From: Perkinsus chesapeaki
Lineage: Eukaryota > Perkinsozoa > Perkinsida > Perkinsidae
NCBI GenBank assembly: GCA_013115145.1
Contig: JAAPAO010000001.1
Coordinates: 1-64,000, forward strand
Direction: 5' to 3'
Length of the DNA: 64,000 nt
Translations under genes and position numbers: made by a program
In this document: piece by piece, positions 12,374 through 54,439 of the stretch
How positions within the stretch are numbered: the first letter of the stretch is position 1
Layout of the letters: every line of letters begins with the position of its first letter
Notes under the pieces: generated by a model
The model's database searches: none
What the model saw: only the letters and a program-made list of their open reading frames with translations
What the model was told of the DNA's origin: nothing

Positions 12374-15300
12374 ATGAGCAATCGTTATTATCAGATGAGG
12401 GCATCTCATGAGGAGCTGGGAACATCTAATCCCGGTCATGAGGGCAATACGAAGGGATCAGCGCTGCCACCGCCACTAAAAAGAAGGAGTAATAACCGCA
12501 GGCCATGGCTGATGTTAACTTGGCGACGAGCGCTGCTACCGATGCTAGTGGTTGTATGCCTCATTGGCCTTACTATTAATCATCCTAATTCTGTGGACTT
12601 AGTGGTATCTGGGGCTATGGTAAAAGCTCAGGACATCAGTTTGGCTGAAGAGGAGGAGGAGGAGGAGGAAGAAGAAGTTGATGATAGGAATAATAACATC
12701 GAGGTGGTTGCAGATGATGATGATGCGAAGGAGGATGAAGAAAGGTATGGTTACTGTGAAGCTCAGGGCCTGGAGGATGCTGGGGATGGCACTTGCAAGA
12801 ATCCGGATGTTTTAACGATCATCCGACGCCAACAGAAGGACCCTTCCTCCGACTCTTCTACCGAATCGACGTCGTCATCATCATCAAGCTCCTCCTCCGC
12901 CTCCTCTTCGTCTGCATCATCATCTGAGACTGGCTCAAGCTCGCTACCTAACCCTTTTGAATCTAAGGAGATGATGGACATTTTTAAGGACACTACAGAC
13001 TTTGTGGTATCTTTAGTTGATGGCAGGCTTATAGCCTTTGATGGTTGTGGTACTAAACTTTGGACATATACAGCCAAGTCACCAACGGTAGAGGCGCGCT
13101 TTAATGAAACTGCGGCTAAGGGCCTTGGAAGTGGTGATTGGGCCAGTCATTTTGCCGCGGATGATCCTACTAGAACACCGAGGATTGTGCCGGCGCTTGA
13201 TGGGACAGTATATATAGTCACACCCAATCCTCAGTCGCCGAGTCAGATAGTGTTTACGCACCTACCAACACTTCTGGAGGACATGGTCAGCGTTGCTCCC
13301 TTCTATAGCCCAGCATTTCCGGGGATGTATGTTACTGGTAGCAAGCTGCAAGGCGGCACTACAGTTGATTTCTCCAAGGTGGAATGGCACATACCATCGG
13401 GGCCATTGCCGAGGTATATGAAGAAGAACAAGCTTGTATTTGCCAGGCAGGAGTGGGCATTACATTCGCTGGCGGCCGAGGATTCGGAGGAGGTATGGCG
13501 GGCCAGTTACGCGGAGTTCCCTCCCGTCACGCATGAGCACCTGTTCGCTGGGACAGAGGTGAATGCCAGAGCTAGAGCACTGACTAGTGTCATTGGGATA
13601 TTGGATAATCAAACGAGTGTATATAAGAAGATAGCGGATCACAACAGATGTCCGACAATTCGACGGGCAGTAGAGGAGGGGCAGGCTTTGGACGAACCAT
13701 TAAAGCTGGTCTTTGACTCTCCTGTGGTAGGAGTATTTGCTGTTGTTAACCCTCAAGATACTCCAGCGAAGTTGGGTATGGTACCAGTGGCACACGCTGG
13801 TCCGTGGTGCCATGAGGTAATAAAGGGGGATTGCGGCTATCCTGACTGGGTGGTGTTGGCTCGTGGATAGTAGAACATGTTGGTAGTGTATTCCTGTGTC
13901 TTGTATAGAATTATCATATTCTCATAATAGTCATAGTGCCGAGTCGGGTCGTAGGCTGCCAGCTCGGCCTTTGATAGGTGTGCTGAGATGGTGTATTTAG
14001 TGGCTTTAGTTATCTTATATAGGGTAACCGATTCCCTGTAGTCTATAATAGTACTTGTGGCCTTTTATGAGATTATCATTTCGTAGTTGTTTTTCAGTTC
14101 CCTGGCTATGATAAGTTAACAATACCGTCATATGTTAACATGCCCCACGCCTATGATGGCAGACCACAGCTTTATCCACCATTCACCTATAACGACGGCC
14201 AAAGGGGGCGTCATCCTAGGGGCTCCGTCAAGGACGAGCAGCCTTACTATATGTACAAAAACAGACGGAGGAGTCCAGAGCCACTGCAGCTGGCACTGGA
14301 AGGAGGGGTTACTCTGGATGAGATGGCAAGTATTTTTATAAAGCTCAACGGTCCGAACCGGCTTTTCTTCGGGGGCCTGGGCGGCGACTACGATATGGGC
14401 GGCGGACCAGGCGGCCCGGGCGGTGGTCGTGCTGCTCCCCCGGGCCATGGATCATTTGGACAGCTTCCCGACGGCGGGGCTAACTACCATGATGAGTATA
14501 AAATTAGGCCTTTAAGTTTACCAGGCCCTGGTGGAAGCTACACGACCGTGGACCCAGCGAAGGTGCATTATCTCAATGACGTGGCGCGTAACACTTCTCT
14601 TCGAGAGTTCCTAGCCGTGAAGTATCAACATAACTACATAGTGCTGATCTTCCTCCTGGGTCTCATGGGCTTCGGCGCTGTGGTGTATCGGTTCATAGCT
14701 GGCTGGGTGCAGGTGTTTAAAGTGGTGGCCCCGGACGGAGAGGGTATGTCCCCTGGACTTGGACAGGATGATGATGAGATGAGTGAAGACGAGGAGATGG
14801 AGGATGGTGAAGATGATGCGGAGGACTCTGATTTCCTGTCTGCGGCGGCATCGATGGATTTGATAGAGCAACCGTATGACATGGGCAAGTTGTTGGATAT
14901 CAAGCAGGATATAATGTATATACCGGAATGGCAGGACATACTGCTGCAGACAAGTCTTAATAAGAGACTTCAGCAGTTCAACGATCTCACTAGAATAGCC
15001 TTCAAACACGGTGAGAGCGATGTCCGAACGCTTCATGGCGGAGTGCTGTTCCTTGGTCGCAATGTCGATGATCCGCAGTTCATCTTCCGCAACCCCAAGC
15101 AGGAGCTCAGTCAGAGGCCTAACGTACCCAAATACACTCAGGCGGTTAGGAACGCTGTTGCTGGAAATGCTATGAAGGAAGTGCGCTATTTGAAGGCCTA
15201 CTGCCCGAAGGCATGTGTGGCGAGTTGGAACACCTTCGAGGGGGTCATACAGGACTTTGTATGCAAGCATCCGACGGATTCACACGTCAGCTGCCGAGAC

Positions 15301-16794
15301 GTCGACCCAGAAGTTGCCAGAGATGCATCATTGATCATTATGGCATTGAGAGATACTGATGCTCATGAGGATAATATGATGAGAGATAAGCTTGGCAGGA
15401 TAGCTCTGTTCGACCTTGGGTGCGCACTGGCCGATAGACCATTGCCGAGGGACGACATGACCCAGGAGTACCTGGACAACTTTGCCTTCTGGCACCAGAC
15501 TCCACTGGTATTGGACGCCCCATTCACGTCTCAGCAAATCCGCTATCTGAAGTCCCTTGACTTTGAGAAGTTACGGAAGATCTGGTCCCACTTCAACTAC
15601 CCCGGCTACGTTGTGGCGGAGTGCGAGCGAGCTAGGCGGCGTGGAAGGCTGAGAAGATCTTCGCGAGGTCGGTCTAGGTCAGCACACACCAGATCCCATA
15701 GCACTAGCAGCCCGGGTGTGGTCCGCCAGGCTTTGGGATATTTAGTCAGTCCTCGGGCGGCTGGCAACACCAATTCGGAGGTGGAATCTGGCGGCAGTCC
15801 CACAGCAGCAACTCAACGACCACTGCTGCCTCTGGTGCTTCCTCAGCGAGTGGCTGGTCGGCGACCTCAGCCGTCGCAAGACGACCGTGGGAGCGATCGG
15901 GCGTCGTCCTCACCGAGCCCACCTGGGACGAGAGAGGGCTCTGAAGGGGAGACTGATAATGCTACGTCAAGTGGCGAGGAGGCCACTGTGCCGAGGAAGC
16001 CGGGATCGAATCGAAGGAGGGCGAGGGCAGAGACGTTTGCGGTGGCAAAAGTGTCAAGAGAATATGAACCGAGCAGCAACGAAAGCTGCAATCATAACGA
16101 TCATGATGAGACCACCGATGAAGAGTCTGTTGGAGACTACGATGAAGTAAGGATGGTACCAACAGTTGACATGGTCAATGTTATGGAGGCTAATGTAAGA
16201 TTCCTTTTGAGATGTGCGGAGACCGACAAGCCTATGCTGTTCGCTGCAGAGGTGAGCCTTCGCTTGTACTGTGGATGTGCTGTATGTAGTGTGGTTCAGG
16301 TTATGTATAGTGGCCTCTACGAGAGGGTATGGCATGACCTTCCGGGTGGGGTCACAGACTTTGAGAGCCTTGGTGACACGCTTGTCGACATTGCCAGCGT
16401 TGAATCAGTTTATGATATCTTCACGGATTGGGATGATAGAAGGACTGGCCACCGTCATGTTGATATGTTATGGGCCGGCCCACCGAGGCCTCTGCCTCTC
16501 TGCAATGGTCATCGTAATGGCGATGCCACCGACACCAGCTCCGACAAGCTCCTCTCCCCTGCCGACGAATCCATGTCGTGCCGTAGCGGTTCTGTGGCCT
16601 CGCGGTTCGACGGGGAAATTGAGATGGTTGGGTTCGACGATGACAATACAAGTGTTGAGATGGGGACGGCGGCTTCGGTAGCCAGCGGACGACCAGGTGG
16701 TGATGGTGTTACTACTAGTGAGAGCGAGGAAGGTGAAGCGAAGAAAAAGACGAAGAAAAATGTTACCATTAGAATCGGTAATACATTCACTTAA
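12374..16794 (+). CDS. IRE1-like luminal domain fused through a membrane span to a PI4K-gamma-like kinase
   Basis: Two long frames join if intron 13817-14097 (GTAATA...TTTTTCAG) and a frame-preserving 48-nt intron 16252-16299 are removed; 4092 nt remain, exactly 1363 codons plus stop. Residues about 50-67 are a hydrophobic signal anchor, followed by poly-Glu and poly-Ser stretches. About 205-480 resembles the IRE1/PERK luminal beta-propeller: VSLVDGRLIAFDGCGTKLW, IVPALDGTVY, VFARQEWALHSL...EEVWRASY, FDSPVVGVF. A second membrane span lies at about 659-682, then an acidic segment. About 785-985 resembles type II PI4-kinase gamma: DTDAHEDN (D902, H904, N907), IALFDLGCAL (D920), FAFWHQTP and PFTSQQIRYLKSLD. 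A charged tail rich in Arg and Ser follows. No IRE1-type RNase domain is visible. It may be an ER-membrane sensor signalling through phosphoinositides. If the 281-nt intron is not real, these are two adjacent genes. Confidence 0.72.
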
Positions 16795-45078: not shown

Positions 45079-46404
45079 ATGTCTCATTCTTATAACACAA
45101 ATGGGGACAGCACCGGCACAGGAGACTCCTCTCCGTCTAGTCTTCTGCAAAACACAGATCTCTACGACCTTCTACATGTAGCTCGAGACAGTGATGCTGA
45201 TGGGATCCGTCAAGGTTACTTGGAGCAGAGCAAGCTGCATCATCCGGACAAGCGGGCGTCTCAGGGAGGAGACCCGGAAGCATTTCGTCAGATCAATTAC
45301 GCCTACAGGGTACTGTCCAACCCCACTATGAGGGCTTTTTACGACAAGTACGGCCCAGAGGGTATTAGCCTCGCCGATGGTATAGTTGTAAAGCAGGATG
45401 AAACTCTTGCCAATCTGGAGCGTCGAGTTAGAGCTATGGTACGCAGCAATGAGGAGATGAAGGTGCAGAGGATGTTCCAACTGCAAGGGGAGATGACGAC
45501 CGGGCTCAAATTCCGTGACTTACACTCTGCCCCTCGATGGGCATACACGAGCTTTACCCATGGTATGGGCATCACTGCAGGGAGGCACAACTTCACCGTT
45601 GTCACCGCCAGCCATGTCCAAGCCAATGGCGGTGGTGTTGGGAAGATGACCTTCTTTTGGCAGACTGGTTGGAGCCCCTATATGCAGAGCCGAGTTATGG
45701 TGGATACAGTAGCGGGCCAGTGGTGGCCACCGGCTATCGAGGGGGTAGTTACACGTCAAGTGGGGCAGCATTCGACCCTGAGACAGACGGTTTCATGGAC
45801 CCAAGCTGGAGGGGTGGGAGCTGCTATGACTTGGGGACTTCAGCTCTTCAAGGATTGGTCTGGCAGCGTTACATTGGCCGTGGGACACGGTAATCATGCG
45901 GCATTCGAGATCGAGAAGACAAATCCCGAAATTGGCGGGGATGATGATCTGGCCAGGATGAAGGCGTGGGACAGATGCACTATGAAATACAATTTCTCAA
46001 TAGAGGGGGAGGGCAACGTTGCCTTTGAAGCGAAGGCCGTGTTGCCGTTCAGTGGCGGCTTCGAGATCTCCTGTGGCCCCACAATGTCTTTGGCCACGGG
46101 TGCCGGTATCGAGTTGAAATGTTCACAGCAGCTGAATGGCGCTGAGAGCTTGAGTGACTGGGAGGAGCTTGATGGTGCCTTCCCGACTCTAGTGCAGTGG
46201 TCACTTATGCTTCGATGGCCCAACTTCGATTCGGCTATCCTAAAGTTCCGCTTCACCCGGGGAGGAGCCGCCTTTACCCTACCGTTGGAGTTCTCTGTGC
46301 CTGGTGATAACACTGGTGTGGCCATGGCAACCAGTATCTTTTTGGCTGCCCCATTAGCAGTAAAGGTGGTGAGAGAGACAGTCCGAAGGCTCAAGAAAGA
46401 CTAG
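45079..46404 (+). CDS. DNAJC11-like J-domain protein
   Basis: A single-exon frame of 441 residues. The J domain (about residues 27-95) reads DLYDLLHVARDSDADGIRQG with the HPD motif at 55-57 (LHHPDK) and ends FYDKYGPEG. The remainder lacks the zinc and Gly/Phe regions of DnaJ. Instead it is rich in alternating beta strands (GMGITAGRHNFTVVTASHVQ, TVAGQWWPPAIEGVVTRQVG, RWPNFDSAILKFRF), matching the beta-barrel-like and C-terminal domain of DNAJC11. DNAJC11 sits at the mitochondrial outer membrane and associates with the MICOS cristae-organising system. The same location is inferred here. The ATG at 45079 is the first in frame. Confidence 0.78.
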   Translation: MSHSYNTNGDSTGTGDSSPSSLLQNTDLYDLLHVARDSDADGIRQGYLEQSKLHHPDKRASQGGDPEAFRQINYAYRVLSNPTMRAFYDKYGPEGISLADGIVVKQDETLANLERRVRAMVRSNEEMKVQRMFQLQGEMTTGLKFRDLHSAPRWAYTSFTHGMGITAGRHNFTVVTASHVQANGGGVGKMTFFWQTGWSPYMQSRVMVDTVAGQWWPPAIEGVVTRQVGQHSTLRQTVSWTQAGGVGAAMTWGLQLFKDWSGSVTLAVGHGNHAAFEIEKTNPEIGGDDDLARMKAWDRCTMKYNFSIEGEGNVAFEAKAVLPFSGGFEISCGPTMSLATGAGIELKCSQQLNGAESLSDWEELDGAFPTLVQWSLMLRWPNFDSAILKFRFTRGGAAFTLPLEFSVPGDNTGVAMATSIFLAAPLAVKVVRETVRRLKKD

Positions 46405-46621
46405 CATTATATACCAATCAGCAGCAGTGAGACCGTCAGTAGCTGTAGTATCAATCGTTTCGTGGTAGTCATTTAAGTTGCGTTGCGAAGTCCTAGGGGA
46501 TCGCCATTCTCCTTGAGCTTTATCACACAATCGGCTGTCCCCTATGTACGAATGGGTCGGGCATACTACCTTGCCACTCGACAGTCCGCTGTTCTCAGTG
46601 GCATTTAATTGTCTATTCAAT

Positions 46622-49600
46622 ATGGAATCGACGCGCGGTGCTGGATGCATATCCTTGGCCGTGCGAACCGTGCTAGCATTGATGGTGATGCTCCTCATAG
46701 GAGTTGCTTTTGGTGAAGAAGTCTTAGACACACCCTCTGGTCGACCGATCTCTCTGGTGAAGGGTCCAGTCGACGGAACAAAATGTGAAGTTGAGGCGGT
46801 CCAGAGGGCGAACTCGGCACAGCTGCATTCGATTCTGGAGGAGCTGGCCAACACAACATACTTCCGCTTGGTGCGGGTGGCCATGGACGATGACTGTCCC
46901 TTTACGTGGGGCGACAAAAACAAGGATGAAGTCACGTGCGGATCTACTCCACCCGGAGGACCAGCTGCCGCATTTGGTTTTGGCAGCTCCCTGAGTTCGC
47001 CTGGTGGCGGCGCTTCTCTATGCAGTATCGAGCCCACTGGTAACGAGGTTAATCCTTTTATCTCTGATACAGAGTCCAGTGTGATCGAGGATGAGTTTGA
47101 TGATGATATGGATAGCGATGACGACGACGTGAGCTTGAGGCCGGATTTCTGGTTTGATATCTGCCGCCCGCCACGAGCCGGCAGCCAACTTGACTATGTG
47201 AATCTGGTCTTGAACCCCGAGCAAAACACAGGGTACAATGGCTCTCATATATGGGAGGCCATCGATGCCGAGAACTGTGTTAGCATTGGCCGGGGCCTTG
47301 GCGGTGGTTCTGGTGGGTATTGTTATGAGGAGCGGGTGCTCCAGAGACTTCTCTCTGGGATGCATGAGTCTGTCACTATACAGGTGCTGGCCAACTACTA
47401 TCCTCCCAAGAAGGGTGAAGTTGCTTGGAGACCCAACACTGATAAGTTCATGGCCACCGTCGGCAAACATCCTGAGTGGTTGAAGAATCTCAACTTTGCC
47501 TATTTGGTGATGCTCAGAGCCCTTCACAAGGCCAAACCAGTTCTCTACAACTGGGAGTACACTACAGGAGAGCCAACAGAGGACGAGAACACTTCAAAGC
47601 TGATGAAACACTTACTGGATGCTTCTGAGATGAAACTCTGTACTCCTGTTTTCGAAGGTTTTGACGAGGACAGCCTCTTTCCAGTTGACCGATCAGATAG
47701 GCGACAGTTGGCAGAGCAGTTCAAGTCTGTCTTCCAGAACGTCACCACCCTTACCAACTGTGTTCGGTGTCGTCGTTGCCGTCTCCATTCCAAGGTGACC
47801 CTGCTTGGCCTTGGTACTGGTTTGAAGATCCTGCTCACTCCGGATGTATCTCTCCTGCCATCAGCCCTCTCTCGAGATGAGATAGTTGCTTTGGTTAACA
47901 CCGTACATACTTTCTCACACAGCCTCATGGAGGTAGGGCGTCTCACTAACCTCTACCTCGAAGACCAGCGGAAACTTGTGGCCCAAGTGTCCCGTCCAGC
48001 TGCAGCCTTCAGCAACTCGGGGGCTTCGGCAATGGAACTCGCTCTATCCTACGTCGCAGAGCTCCATCTTGACCAAGCCAATGAAGATCTTCTGGTGGAC
48101 GCTATTGTGGATCGAGATGAAGCTGTTTTGTCCCTTGCTGCCAGCTTCCCGCCAGAGGCCTTCGGCCGCCATGCTCTGAGGTATCTCAAGTCCAGGCAGC
48201 GCACTGTGAAAGATACCCGCCCCCGGTACGATGCAGTTGTCGTTGGTGGTGGTCTTGCTGGCATGAGTGCGGCCATCGCCTCTGCAGATCGAGGTGCTCG
48301 GGTGCTCCTTCTGGACAAGTCGAAGCATCTTGGTGGTAACAGTGCGAAGGCGTCGAGTGGCATCAATATGAGGATGGACCAGAGCGGCGAATGCTATGAT
48401 TCCTTCCTCAGTGACACTATACGGAGCTGCGAGAGCGGCCTGGGCCCCTGCGGTCATCCAGAGCTCGCCAACGTCCTTGTGAATGACTCCTATGACGCCG
48501 TACACTGGATAGAGGACCGCTTTGGTGTACCTCTGTCAGCCCCGGTGAAGCTTGGCGGTCATTCTAGGCCGAGAACTGTGAGGCCGCCCGGGGGTCTTGT
48601 GGGAGCAGAACTCACAGCAGCTGGATCGAAGGTCATCCACAAAATGTCTAATATTGTTGTGGTCAACAACGCTAAGTTGGTCGGTTTGATAGCCGACCAC
48701 TCTGGCACTCACGAGGCCGTTCGAGGAGTTAGGTACACTGTTGGATCTGATGAGACCACTGTAGAAGTTCTCAGTGACTCGGTTGTTTTGGCTACTGGTG
48801 GGTTCGGTTATGACGTCTCGAGTGGCTCTCTGATGGCTAAGTACCGGCCCGACCTTCTGACGTTCCCTACAACTCTTGGATCTCAGACCACTGGTGACGG
48901 CATAAAGATAGCTGTGAGGGATGCCGATGCAGGCCTAAGAGACATGGACCAAGTCCAGCTCCACCCCACTGGCTTCATTGACCCCAAGGATCCAGACTCT
49001 CGGACCAAAGTCCTTGCTGCCGAGATTCTCCGAGGTGTCGGCGGCGTTATTATTGATAAGAACGGCCACCGATTCTGTGACGAGCTGGGCACGCGTAAAT
49101 ACGTGACCTCTAAGATGCTCGAAAGAGCTAATGAGACTGGCGATACCTCGAGGACCTTCAGCATCCTTATACCATATGATGCTATCAATGGTCCCGCTAA
49201 GAGGCACATTAACATGTACAAGTCCCGAGGCCTTCTACAAGAGGTGGATTACAATACCGCAGTTGAAATGGTTGGTGGTGACAGCTGGAAGGATTCAGTC
49301 GACAAATCCTCTAATGGGCGCTATTTTGTTGGTGAGGTTACCCCGGTTATCCACTACACCATGGGCGGCATCAGCATCGATACCGACGGTCATGTCCTCG
49401 ACACTCATGGAGATCTCATCGACGGCCTTTGGGCAGCTGGCGAAGTCGCTGGTGGTGTTCATGGACGTAACCGTCTGGGGGGTAATTCCCTCCTCGAGTG
49501 TGCGGTCTTCGGCAAGCGGATCGGTGACCGATTACCGGTGGAGAAGTACCATCAACCAGACGAACCTGTGGAGTCCGATCACCCGAAGCGCTCTAAGCCT

Positions 49601-49873
49601 ACTATCGACATCGCCGAGCTGGCTAAGCACGGTACGCCAAATGATTGCTGGATCGCATTGTATGGATCGGTCTACGACTTCAGCGGATACTCCACTGAGC
49701 ATCCCGGAGGATCGTCTGCTATAGAAGGCGGATGCGGCAGAGATGCGACTGAGACGTTTGAGCAGGTGCATACTGCTAACTTGGTTGAGGACATGGGCTT
49801 CGAGCCTATAGGCAACTTCTTCGCTGAAGGCAAAGTTGGCGCTGGGAACCGACACGCGGCTGATGAGTTGTGA
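46622..49873 (+). CDS. ERO1-fumarate reductase-cytochrome b5 fusion protein
   Basis: One uninterrupted frame encodes three enzymes of about 1083 residues. From ATG 46622 a signal peptide is present (VRTVLALMVMLLIGVAFG); the in-frame ATG 46544 is an alternative. Residues about 60-450 are ERO1, the ER thiol oxidase that recharges protein disulfide isomerase: DDDCPFTW, VLNPEQNTGYNGSHIW, LLSGMHESV, LNFAYLVMLRALHKAKP and the active-site CVRCRRC (C380/C383/C386) followed by GLGTGLKIL. About 535-990 is a flavoprotein fumarate reductase of the Osm1 type: FAD motif VVVGGGLAGMSAA (542-547), HPTGF at 781, YTMGGI and GRNRLGGNSLLEC. About 1000-1075 is cytochrome b5 with heme ligands in HPGG (H1027) and VHTA (H1050). 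An electron path from ERO1 FAD to fumarate is the obvious inference. The ERO1 shuttle cysteines (C106, C134) are separated by a 27-residue insertion. Confidence 0.9.
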   Translation: MESTRGAGCISLAVRTVLALMVMLLIGVAFGEEVLDTPSGRPISLVKGPVDGTKCEVEAVQRANSAQLHSILEELANTTYFRLVRVAMDDDCPFTWGDKNKDEVTCGSTPPGGPAAAFGFGSSLSSPGGGASLCSIEPTGNEVNPFISDTESSVIEDEFDDDMDSDDDDVSLRPDFWFDICRPPRAGSQLDYVNLVLNPEQNTGYNGSHIWEAIDAENCVSIGRGLGGGSGGYCYEERVLQRLLSGMHESVTIQVLANYYPPKKGEVAWRPNTDKFMATVGKHPEWLKNLNFAYLVMLRALHKAKPVLYNWEYTTGEPTEDENTSKLMKHLLDASEMKLCTPVFEGFDEDSLFPVDRSDRRQLAEQFKSVFQNVTTLTNCVRCRRCRLHSKVTLLGLGTGLKILLTPDVSLLPSALSRDEIVALVNTVHTFSHSLMEVGRLTNLYLEDQRKLVAQVSRPAAAFSNSGASAMELALSYVAELHLDQANEDLLVDAIVDRDEAVLSLAASFPPEAFGRHALRYLKSRQRTVKDTRPRYDAVVVGGGLAGMSAAIASADRGARVLLLDKSKHLGGNSAKASSGINMRMDQSGECYDSFLSDTIRSCESGLGPCGHPELANVLVNDSYDAVHWIEDRFGVPLSAPVKLGGHSRPRTVRPPGGLVGAELTAAGSKVIHKMSNIVVVNNAKLVGLIADHSGTHEAVRGVRYTVGSDETTVEVLSDSVVLATGGFGYDVSSGSLMAKYRPDLLTFPTTLGSQTTGDGIKIAVRDADAGLRDMDQVQLHPTGFIDPKDPDSRTKVLAAEILRGVGGVIIDKNGHRFCDELGTRKYVTSKMLERANETGDTSRTFSILIPYDAINGPAKRHINMYKSRGLLQEVDYNTAVEMVGGDSWKDSVDKSSNGRYFVGEVTPVIHYTMGGISIDTDGHVLDTHGDLIDGLWAAGEVAGGVHGRNRLGGNSLLECAVFGKRIGDRLPVEKYHQPDEPVESDHPKRSKPTIDIAELAKHGTPNDCWIALYGSVYDFSGYSTEHPGGSSAIEGGCGRDATETFEQVHTANLVEDMGFEPIGNFFAEGKVGAGNRHAADEL

Positions 49874-52953: not shown

Positions 52954-54439
52954 ATGGATGGCCAGCCATCGGTGTCCGAGTCAGATTCCAGCTCAGATGG
53001 ATCAGAGTACGCTGACGTCGACTGGGCCTCACCATCAGATAACGAGACAGCATCGATCACGGCGGCCACGACCATACAAACCGGCCAGGAGGTGCACATA
53101 ACTCTACCACCTCAGCGGGGGCGAAAGAGAAGGAGAAATGCCCGCCCAGTTTCACGGAGGGAGATCATGGCCTGGTTCAGCGCATTTGAGGACCTCACAC
53201 ACTTATGTTTCGATTCCGACCTCATCAAGCGTGCCGTCAATGACCGCATGAGAGAGATGGACGTGCCGCTGCCATCACAGGCACCTTTCACTATGGTGCC
53301 TTGGCCTCCGTACTGGATAGCTGCGGACCCCTCCCAACTGGACTTGAGCCTCGAGCCCCTGCCAACATCGGAATCTATTGCCGACGAGCTGCTCCTCAGC
53401 GATGGAGGAGTGTCCACCTACATTGGGGCTCTGGCAGCGACTTGCGCTGCAATAGAGGGCGGAGCAACCTTGTTCGCAGCTACTGGGTATCCGATGCCTT
53501 GGCTAGAAATTGGTTCTGGGAAGGCGGTTGGCCTTCCACCAGGGAAATCGAGAACTCTTGGCGTGGTGATAGGCAAAAGGAAGATCGGCGACTTTTTTGA
53601 TGCCACTGTTAAGTACGGTAGTCTCCGGCGAGCCAAAATACTCAAGTGGCTGCGGATTTCCCCTGGCCCGGACGATGGCAAGCTCCCCAGAAGTATTGAG
53701 GGCTTTAGAAATAGCACTACCTACATATTGGACTCGCAGTTGACGAAGTTCGACCACTTGAAGGAGGCTGCTAGGCCAGTTGGTGTTTTCTCTGGCCGGG
53801 ACCCTATATATTTACGGGAAGATGTCGAACGATTGAGGACTGAGTCACAGTGGGAGCGGCGGGGCATGGTTCTGAGATCTGATGCAGGGAGCTGTAAGCG
53901 AACACTCGAGACTAAACGAAAATTAGTGAAACTGTACTCTGAAGAGCAGACTGAAGAAGCGCCTGAGAGACACCTTGGAGCCGACGGAGAGATTCCAGTC
54001 AACCGGTTCGGCTTTGTTGACCTCACCGATGGCAGACGCCCTCCAGAAGGAACTGAGTTCGTCGTAGGCATACCCTTGCGGAGGGTCATACGGAAATGCA
54101 AGGAGATTGGGGTTGAACATTGGGCTCCCGCCCATACTGGATGGATGGCACAAAGACCGCAAATCGGGGGAGTGGTAGGCTGGTGGATTCTAACTTGATT
54201 TATTTCTAAAAAATCGTTGGTATGTCGAATACGAGCTCATGATTCAGGTCGTCGCGATGGCTGACGCAAGTGTTCTGAGAGACAGCTTGGAGGAGGATAC
54301 CAGAACTCGTGAGGAGGCACAGCGGTTGAAAGATGAGCGACTCGCTAAGATAGCGTGGAAAGCGCTCATAAAAAGGCTACTGGCCAGAAGATACGTCGAG
54401 ATGATTTCAGCGTCCAGTGCGACATCCAGGCGACATTGA
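52954..54439 (+). CDS. XPC/Rad4-like DNA damage recognition protein, short form
   Basis: Removing a 73-nt intron (54175-54247) leaves 1413 nt, 470 codons plus stop. XPC/Rad4 detects helix-distorting lesions for nucleotide excision repair. The end of the transglutaminase-like domain is visible (GDFFDATVKYGSLRRAKILK). The beta-hairpin domains follow: DSQLTKFDHLKEAARPVGVF, YLREDVERLRTESQWERRG, GEIPVNRFGFVDL and AHTGW. The final exon after the intron reads VVVAMADASVL and then EEAQRLKDERLAKIAWKALI with a basic end, the standard C-terminal block. The N terminus is acidic and Ser-rich with a nuclear localisation-like RGRKRRRNAR. At 470 residues it is much shorter than fungal or animal homologues (750-940) because most of the transglutaminase region is missing. 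Confidence 0.8.

What the first reader, a model, noticed from the sequence alone, without database searches (positions are those of the whole stretch)
46622..49873. Single-chain ERO1-fumarate reductase-cytochrome b5: a possible oxygen-independent disulfide-forming enzyme
The sequence shows one unbroken reading frame with an ER signal peptide, a full ERO1 domain (CxxCxxC at 380-386), an Osm1-type flavoprotein fumarate reductase and a cytochrome b5 with both heme ligands. Established knowledge: ERO1 normally passes thiol electrons to oxygen, and in yeast the ER form of the fumarate reductase Osm1 supports ERO1-dependent folding without oxygen. A covalent fusion would channel electrons from cysteines through ERO1 FAD, perhaps b5 heme, to fumarate, making succinate instead of peroxide. 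I know of no described protein with this architecture. It would suit an organism living in hypoxic host tissue.
Basis: partly seen in the sequence, partly recalled or inferred. Interest (0 to 1): 0.96.

Follow-up and report, generated by a model that had tools for sequence, protein, structure and literature searches.

The report
Fused ER disulfide-making fumarate reductase
A single protein in a shellfish parasite joins the enzyme that makes disulfide bonds in secreted proteins to one that passes electrons to fumarate instead of oxygen; the same fusion occurs in free-living dinoflagellates and diatoms, so it may let much marine plankton fold proteins without oxygen.

Summary
Window 46622-49873 (+) is one 1083-codon frame: signal-like N-terminus, ERO1, a helical linker domain, Osm1-type soluble fumarate reductase, cytochrome b5, and a C-terminal ADEL resembling an ER-retrieval signal. 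It is not an artefact: of 198 proteins held (the window protein plus 197 recovered), 91 carry ERO1 and reductase in one chain, all in this order, 86 with the same linker and 83 with b5. They come from Perkinsus, dinoflagellates and diatoms, one truncated haptophyte model, and many unnamed sources; some are transcript-derived. The ERO1 CxxCxxC, the six Osm1 catalytic residues and both heme histidines are almost invariant. It is the only ERO1 found in the 35.4-Mb genome held. Best reading: a single-chain thiol:fumarate oxidoreductase, a covalent form of the yeast Ero1-Osm1 relay, in which b5 may carry electrons between two flavins. Electron path and substrate are inferred, not shown. The hypoxic-host rationale does not explain it, because free-living algae have it too. 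The genome also holds QSOX-like and VKOR genes, and two ERO1 FAD-contact arginines are replaced in Perkinsus. Seven literature searches listed no paper describing the fusion.

The parts
46622..49873 (+). whole gene, 1083 aa plus stop, no intron needed (in-frame upstream ATG at 46544)
   Evidence: full-length relatives
46622..46714 (+). N-terminal signal-like segment (residues 1-31, likely cut after AFG)
   Evidence: sequence; hydrophobic stretch; cleavage site by the (-3,-1) rule (recalled), not predicted by a tool
46820..47932 (+). ERO1 domain (residues 67-437)
   Evidence: Pfam PF04137; 3ahq alignment
46937..47023 (+). candidate shuttle cysteines C106 and C134, 27 residues apart on a loop with pLDDT under 50 (canonical spacing 4)
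47759..47779 (+). ERO1 active site CxxCxxC (C380, C383, C386)
   Evidence: C in 89 of 89 fusions that have a residue at these columns (91 aligned)
48029..48196 (+). helical linker domain (residues 470-525) between ERO1 and reductase
   Evidence: AF2 pLDDT 88-91 over residues 471-520; profile hit in 86 of 91 fusions
48230..49492 (+). Osm1-type soluble fumarate reductase domain (residues 537-957)
   Evidence: Pfam PF00890, TIGR01813 above cut-off, 5glg by sequence and fold
48962..48964 (+). H781 = Osm1 H281, fumarate ligand
   Evidence: 87 of 87; Osm1 numbering from PMC6242907
49022..49033 (+). E801 and R804 = Osm1 E301 and R304, proton path
   Evidence: 86 of 87 each
49094..49096 (+). R825 = Osm1 R326, catalytic Arg
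   Evidence: 86 of 86
49352..49354 (+). H911 = Osm1 H435
   Evidence: 86 of 86
49472..49474 (+). R951 = Osm1 R477
   Evidence: 84 of 86
49613..49795 (+). cytochrome b5 domain (residues 998-1058), heme ligands H1027 (49700-49702) and H1050 (49769-49771)
   Evidence: Pfam PF00173; 83 of 83 and 83 of 84; 3ks0 alignment
49859..49870 (+). C-terminal ADEL, ER-retrieval-like
   Evidence: same-genome signal-bearing HSP70s end SPDEL and APDEL; P. olseni RADDEL and Amoebophrya QKDEL

Best explanation
A soluble ER-lumen enzyme with two FADs and one heme b that oxidises PDI thiols and can reduce fumarate to succinate: a single-chain thiol:fumarate oxidoreductase. Proposed path: PDI dithiol to the mobile outer cysteines (C106/C134), to the ERO1 active pair (C383-C386), to the ERO1 FAD, then through the tethered b5 heme (one electron at a time) or directly to the reductase FAD, then to fumarate. 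Shown: architecture, order, conserved residues, long co-inheritance, ER-type ends by sequence. Inferred: cofactor binding, every electron-transfer step, the substrate, and the b5 role. Oxygen is probably still usable by the ERO1 flavin, so the enzyme is best seen as dual-acceptor.
For: 91 of 198 proteins carry ERO1 before the reductase in one chain, none reversed; 86 of 91 keep the linker and 83 of 91 the b5. Catalytic residues of all three modules are near-invariant. Distances between fusions agree between domains (r 0.91 ERO1-FRD, 0.90 ERO1-b5, 0.89 FRD-b5; n = 61; 0 of 500 permutations as high), so the domains have travelled together. Yeast Ero1 and Osm1 reconstitute thiol oxidation with fumarate in an oxygen-depleted tube, bind weakly (Kd about 150-200 uM), and are docked with flavins more than 20 A apart, which the authors call controversial (PMC6242907, sections read); a covalent tether and a heme would address both problems. 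It is the only ERO1 found in the genome held. The reductase paralogues of that genome whose starts I read, three long frames (L002; L003 = L048; L004 = L047) and the interrupted L008, begin at or near the FAD motif with no signal peptide; the weaker hits on C673, C310 and C331 were not examined.
Against: No biochemistry. Two ERO1 FAD-contact arginines shared by human and yeast (human R187 and R300 / yeast R260; roles recalled) are Q201 and W286 here and also replaced in P. olseni; across fusions they are R in 59 of 70 and 47 of 78. The AF2 pTM is 0.55, so domain placement, and with it the flavin-heme distances, is unknown. The outer cysteines are not in a CX4C. The genome also has three QSOX-like genes and one VKOR gene. 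8 of 91 fusions lack a b5 hit (some are fragments), so b5 may not be essential. Only 5 of 91 end in DEL. An ER fumarate supply was not looked for.
Confidence: 0.62

Rival explanations
1. ERO1 works as an ordinary oxygen-using oxidase; the reductase-b5 module is fused for co-targeting or flavin stability and recycles free FADH2 or FMNH2 in the ER, with no intramolecular electron flow.
For: Osm1 oxidises free flavins, and an Osm1 chimera that no longer bound Ero1 still supported thiol oxidation (PMC6242907 discussion). Photosynthetic carriers (lifestyle recalled) mostly live in oxygen. The ERO1 domain keeps much of the normal core: T203, Y205, W211, S245, H248 and CxxCxxC.
Against: A conserved order in 91 of 91 and a folded linker in 86 of 91 suggest fixed geometry rather than loose co-targeting.
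Confidence: 0.22
2. The b5 is an electron exit or entry for a partner (a ferricytochrome, or a luminal reductase feeding the fumarate reductase), so the ERO1 and reductase halves serve different donors.
For: The best PDB matches of the b5 are flavocytochrome b2, where, from memory, flavin electrons leave through the heme. Reductase-b5 pairing without ERO1 is common, including paralogues without signal peptide and with 3 b5 domains in this genome.
Against: No NAD(P)H-reductase module in the chain. The tight ERO1-b5 co-inheritance (r 0.90) would be unexplained.
Confidence: 0.11
3. The reductase domain reduces another enoate rather than fumarate.
For: The fold family includes urocanate reductase (6t85/6t86), so substrate cannot be fixed from fold.
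Against: All six Osm1/Fcc3 catalytic residues are kept in 84-87 of the 86-87 fusions that cover each, and both Ser ligands (S578, S579) in 91 of 91.
Confidence: 0.04
4. Assembly or gene-prediction artefact joining two genes.
For: The public P. chesapeaki model P0003 is mis-spliced, showing that annotation of this locus is unreliable.
Against: Open frame in the raw sequence; same fusion in P. olseni, Effrenium, Polarella, Amoebophrya and diatoms and in transcriptome ORFs; linker shared.
Confidence: 0.01

Closest known systems
Yeast Ero1 plus ER-resident Osm1 (anaerobic disulfide formation, PMC6242907)
   Same: Same two enzymes, same compartment, same proposed acceptor; six catalytic reductase residues identical
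   Different: Two separate proteins with weak binding and no heme in yeast; here one chain with a linker domain and b5
ERO1 family (human Ero1-alpha 3ahq, yeast Ero1 1rp4)
   Same: Full PF04137 domain and CxxCxxC
   Different: Outer cysteines 27 residues apart instead of 4; two FAD-contact arginines replaced in Perkinsus; C-terminal extension of about 640 residues
Soluble fumarate reductases Osm1 (5glg) and Shewanella Fcc3 (1qjd)
   Same: Fold and active site; Fcc3 too carries a heme domain in the same chain
   Different: Heme is a C-terminal b5, not an N-terminal multiheme c domain (position recalled); ERO1 occupies the N-terminal position
Reductase-b5 proteins without ERO1 (basidiomycetes Rhizoctonia and Serendipita; Nitzschia and Cylindrotheca with two b5; Perkinsus paralogues)
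   Same: Same reductase-b5 order
   Different: No ERO1 hit and no linker hit (linker profile not run on the Perkinsus paralogues); Perkinsus and fungal copies group apart from the fusions with support 100

Membership tests
ERO1 (PF04137) | Pfam model above curated cut-off over full length | tested here: met
   262 bits against 27, profile 1-353 of 354
ERO1 (PF04137) | Inner active site CxxCxxC | tested here: met
   C380/C383/C386; 89 of 89 fusions with residues there, 2 of 91 gapped
ERO1 (PF04137) | Outer shuttle cysteine pair on a flexible loop | tested here: inconclusive
   C106 and C134 conserved (57 of 59; 62 of 62) on a loop with pLDDT under 50, but spacing is 27 here (median 34, range 10-153 in 53 proteins), not 4; shuttle role unproven
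ERO1 (PF04137) | FAD-contact residues | tested here: inconclusive
   T203, Y205, W211, S245, H248 kept; human R187 and R300 equivalents are Q201 and W286; roles recalled
ERO1 (PF04137) | Thiol oxidase activity with bound FAD | not testable with these tools
   needs protein
Osm1/Fcc3 soluble fumarate reductase | Subfamily model above cut-off | tested here: met
   TIGR01813 295.4 bits against 285.45
Osm1/Fcc3 soluble fumarate reductase | Six catalytic residues H281, E301, R304, R326, H435, R477 | tested here: met
   H781, E801, R804, R825, H911, R951 all present in the window protein; each kept in 84-87 of the 86-87 fusions covering it; residue list from PMC6242907
Osm1/Fcc3 soluble fumarate reductase | Fold | tested here: met
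   predicted model against 5glg: E 4.8e-34, target TM 0.83
Osm1/Fcc3 soluble fumarate reductase | Fumarate reduction | not testable with these tools
   needs protein
Cytochrome b5 | PF00173 and both heme histidines | tested here: met
   H1027 in 83 of 83, H1050 in 83 of 84
ER-lumen protein | N-terminal signal plus a retrieval signal valid in this organism | tested here: inconclusive
   Sequence favours it; two signal-bearing HSP70s of the same genome end in PDEL, a PDI-like protein in GEEL, a cytosolic-type HSP70 in EEVD. But ADEL itself was seen in no other protein read here, no localisation was measured, and only 5 of 91 fusions (4 Perkinsus-type sequences, 1 Amoebophrya) end in DEL
NADH-dependent fumarate reductase of trypanosomes (recalled) | NADH/flavin reductase module in the chain | tested here: not met
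   no such Pfam hit

The most novel reading that the evidence does not exclude
Large groups of marine protists (Perkinsus, dinoflagellates, diatoms, probably haptophytes) make disulfides with an anciently fused thiol:fumarate oxidoreductase as their main ERO1. Two flavins are wired through a tethered b5 heme, so secretory protein folding can run without oxygen and without making hydrogen peroxide, tied to fumarate/succinate instead. The fusion is a natural test of the disputed Ero1-to-Osm1 electron transfer.
Probability: 0.4. Interest if true: 0.93.

Novelty: new variant of a known kind. Interest (0 to 1): 0.85.

Why it matters
How ERO1 is re-oxidised without oxygen is an open question; in yeast the Ero1-Osm1 link is weak and the flavin-to-flavin distance is disputed (PMC6242907). 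A gene fusion kept across alveolates and stramenopiles is strong independent evidence that the two enzymes belong together, and gives one stable polypeptide on which the electron path, including a heme, can be measured. If active, it means many marine plankton have a built-in alternative to oxygen for protein secretion.

Tried and rejected
Artefact or chance fusion: rejected. Recent joining of local genes: rejected; the reductases without signal peptide of the same genome group apart (support 100). Hypoxic-host adaptation as the cause: rejected because free-living algae (lifestyle recalled) carry it. Single origin of the fusion: not settled. The 177-row FastTree needs 17 changes of the ERO1-or-linker label, inflated by fragments. 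In a reduced tree (59 rows picked by me out of 177 after seeing the first tree: 35 fusions, 18 reductase-only, 6 outgroup) fusions plus reductase-only proteins form one side of a branch against the outgroup (100), the reductase-only rows lie among fusions, and one fusion clade is not rejected (p-AU 0.091). So one gain with later ERO1 loss is likely but unproven.

ERO1-only relatives: 18 of 198. P0065 by eye contains half the linker and looks like a cut gene model; P0069 and P0071 (115 and 38 members) end just after ERO1 and could be real stand-alone ERO1s or stop at introns. So I do not claim that the fusion is the only ERO1 outside Perkinsus.

Fold look by VIA-align: library not present. ERO1 was not among the 50 Foldseek rows shown (all flavoprotein reductase, oxidase or dehydrogenase relatives), so the ERO1 fold rests on sequence. 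Signal peptides across fusions: 39 of 48 with seemingly complete N-termini have an 11-residue window of at least 1.8, but only 22 of 48 beat 190 of 200 shuffles, and some do not look like signals. Literature on the fusion: searches listed no paper on it. Except for the three papers named in the report I saw listings only (titles and starts of abstracts); one search listed 20 of 268 papers; the library holds open-licence PMC papers only. PMC5638582 (Osm1 with Erv1, met in a reference list) is not held.
Full report
What is there. Window 46622-49873 (+) is an uninterrupted 1083-codon frame. Pfam finds ERO1 (67-437), FAD_binding_2 (537-957) and Cyt-b5 (998-1058), all far above cut-off; NCBIfam adds TIGR01813 flavocytochrome c. 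The nearest solved chains are yeast Osm1 for the reductase and human Ero1-alpha for the ERO1 part, and flavocytochrome b2's b5 for the heme domain. AlphaFold2 on an alignment of 38 fusions gives mean pLDDT 79.8 and pTM 0.55: good domains, uncertain arrangement. Residues 471-520 between ERO1 and reductase form a confident helical domain (pLDDT 88-91). Foldseek puts Osm1 first (E 4.8e-34).

Which organism. The public P. chesapeaki protein P0003 is identical to the window frame except for two missing pieces, so the window is very probably Perkinsus chesapeaki (Alveolata, Perkinsozoa). Those two pieces (429 and 228 nt, in-frame, GT...AG) were evidently called introns; they hold all six catalytic residues, which P. 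olseni P0002 retains.

How widespread. One search returned 63 proteins at E <= 1e-10; 58 of them (P0002-P0059) have precomputed ERO1 and FAD_binding_2. Searches (22 listed; 120 listed of 5088) brought the number held to 198 with the window protein. All three searches scored only the 8000 or so candidates sharing most words, so counts are lower bounds. Profiles made here (ERO, linker, FRD, b5) on all 198 give 91 with ERO1 and reductase: 79 ERO-linker-FRD-b5, 7 ERO-linker-FRD, 4 ERO-FRD-b5, 1 ERO-FRD; none reversed and no b5 before the reductase. The 91 include the window protein and P0003, its mis-spliced twin. Another 18 have linker-FRD without ERO1, many probably 5'-truncated. Named carriers: P. 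chesapeaki, P. olseni, Effrenium voratum, Polarella glacialis, Amoebophrya sp. A25, Bacillariaceae MAGs, a sequence whose record begins 'Leptoc' with taxon id 163516 (Leptocylindrus danicus), Pseudictyota dubia, and one haptophyte model (Emiliania huxleyi P0058, truncated early in the reductase). EukProt Trinity ORFs (P0007, P0012, P0017) and MMETSP ORFs (P0022, P0024, P0035, P0140, P0148) are transcript-derived, so the join is in mRNA. P0140 and P0148 lack the start of ERO1.

Constraint. In the alignment of 91 fusions, counting only rows with a residue: CxxCxxC 89 of 89 at each Cys; Osm1 H281 87 of 87, E301 86 of 87, R304 86 of 87, R326 86 of 86, H435 86 of 86, R477 84 of 86; fumarate ligands S78 and S79 91 of 91; heme His 83 of 83 and 83 of 84. 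The few exceptions sit in P0052, P0057 and P0073. The Osm1 residue list is from PMC6242907 (section read). ERO1 C181 (68 of 69) and C340 (84 of 84) are also near-invariant; neither is matched by Cys in the human alignment, so they may form an extra, perhaps regulatory, disulfide (inference). Pairwise distances of ERO1, reductase and b5 correlate at 0.89-0.91 (n = 61, 0 of 500 permutations as high).

Where it works. The N-terminus is signal-like and the C-terminus is RHAADEL. To ask whether this could be an ER-retrieval signal here, I read the ends of ER-type proteins in the same genome: two HSP70s with signal-like starts end in SPDEL and APDEL, a PDI-like protein in GEEL, and an HSP70 without a signal in EEVD. 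P. olseni P0002 and the related P0004 end RADDEL, and Amoebophrya's QKDEL. Dinoflagellate and diatom copies other than Amoebophrya's lack such an end (5 of 91 fusions have it), so their retention, if any, uses other means. The reductase paralogues of this genome whose starts I read (L002, L003 = L048, L004 = L047, and the interrupted L008) begin at or near the FAD motif without a signal; hits on C673, C310 and C331 were not examined.

Only ERO1? The Pfam ERO1 model finds one hit in 35.4 Mb, this gene, and none in the 14 control genomes. The search is intron-blind and the assembly may be partial. Other thiol-oxidation genes exist: three Trx-plus-Erv (QSOX-like) genes and one VKOR.

Mechanism. 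In yeast, Osm1 takes electrons from Ero1 FAD to fumarate by free FAD or direct contact; [quoted passage not shown] three sections read in full). PMC9516139 (search listing and passages only) repeats this model and states that ERO activity depends on oxygen; PMC4021093 (listing and passages only) links anaerobic yeast folding to fumarate reductase and Ero1. The window protein fuses ERO1 on the N-terminal side of the reductase, where Fcc3 has its heme domain, and adds a b5. From general redox knowledge (recalled), thiols to fumarate is downhill and a b5 heme can relay single electrons, though its potential could also make it an exit. I hold thiol to ERO1 FAD to (b5) to reductase FAD to fumarate as most likely (0.62), with oxygen as a second acceptor.

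Evidence against my reading. Two FAD-contact arginines of ERO1 are lost in Perkinsus (Q201, W286); in fusions at large R is kept in 59 of 70 and 47 of 78. The outer cysteines are far apart (C-X27-C; 10-153 in 53 proteins), a trait shared by five ERO1-only relatives, so it is probably not due to fusion. One protein, P0066, is ERO1-linker-b5 without reductase. b5 is missing in 8 of 91. No activity was measured.

Origin. With the signal-less Perkinsus and the fungal reductases among the rows chosen as outgroup, all 35 fusions in the reduced tree group with 18 diatom-type reductase-b5 proteins (100 support), and those ERO1-less proteins lie among fusions. This fits one old fusion and later ERO1 loss in diatom paralogues; p-AU for a single fusion clade is 0.091, not rejected, but the group was picked after a first tree and long branches are present.

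Literature. Seven searches of an open-licence PMC library listed no paper describing the fusion; Ero1 with Perkinsus gave 0 papers, and Ero1 with fumarate reductase gave 8, of which I opened three. Databases that name these proteins mostly call them 'fumarate reductase' or 'flavocytochrome c' or give no function, which hides the ERO1 half. Subscription papers and preprints were not searched.

Noticed in passing
own genome C57 (L047:810-7112, +): One 2100-aa frame with three tandem fumarate reductase domains followed by three b5 domains, no signal peptide.
   Followed up: partly
own genome C104 (L048:700-4719, +): A 1339-aa frame with two tandem fumarate reductases and three b5 domains.
   Followed up: partly
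own genome C206 (L049, - strand): Two neighbouring frames made of tandem b5 domains: five in 743 aa and eight in at least 953 aa, as if poly-heme wires.
   Followed up: partly
window 46622-49873, public model P0003: The public P. chesapeaki gene model omits 143 and 76 residues of the reductase as apparent false in-frame introns, removing the catalytic residues.
   Followed up: yes
window residues 201 and 286 (47222-47224, 47477-47479): ERO1 FAD-contact arginines shared by yeast and human (roles recalled) are Gln and Trp here, and replaced in P. olseni too.
   Followed up: partly
window residues 106-134 (46937-47023): Candidate shuttle cysteines are separated by a long low-confidence loop (median 34 residues in 53 proteins) instead of 4.
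   Followed up: partly
P0066: A related protein with ERO1, linker and b5 but no reductase.
   Followed up: no
own genome C215:28838-31948 and C632:67587-68612: Three Trx-plus-Erv (QSOX-like) genes, two of them side by side.
   Followed up: partly
window 52954-54198 (+): Rad4-like protein (BHD_1 above cut-off, BHD_3 below); the gene upstream of the fusion, 45079-46404, has a DnaJ domain.
   Followed up: no
window 12374-16794 (+): Two long frames without Pfam hits; the first has long acidic and serine-rich stretches, the second a hydrophobic segment.
   Followed up: no
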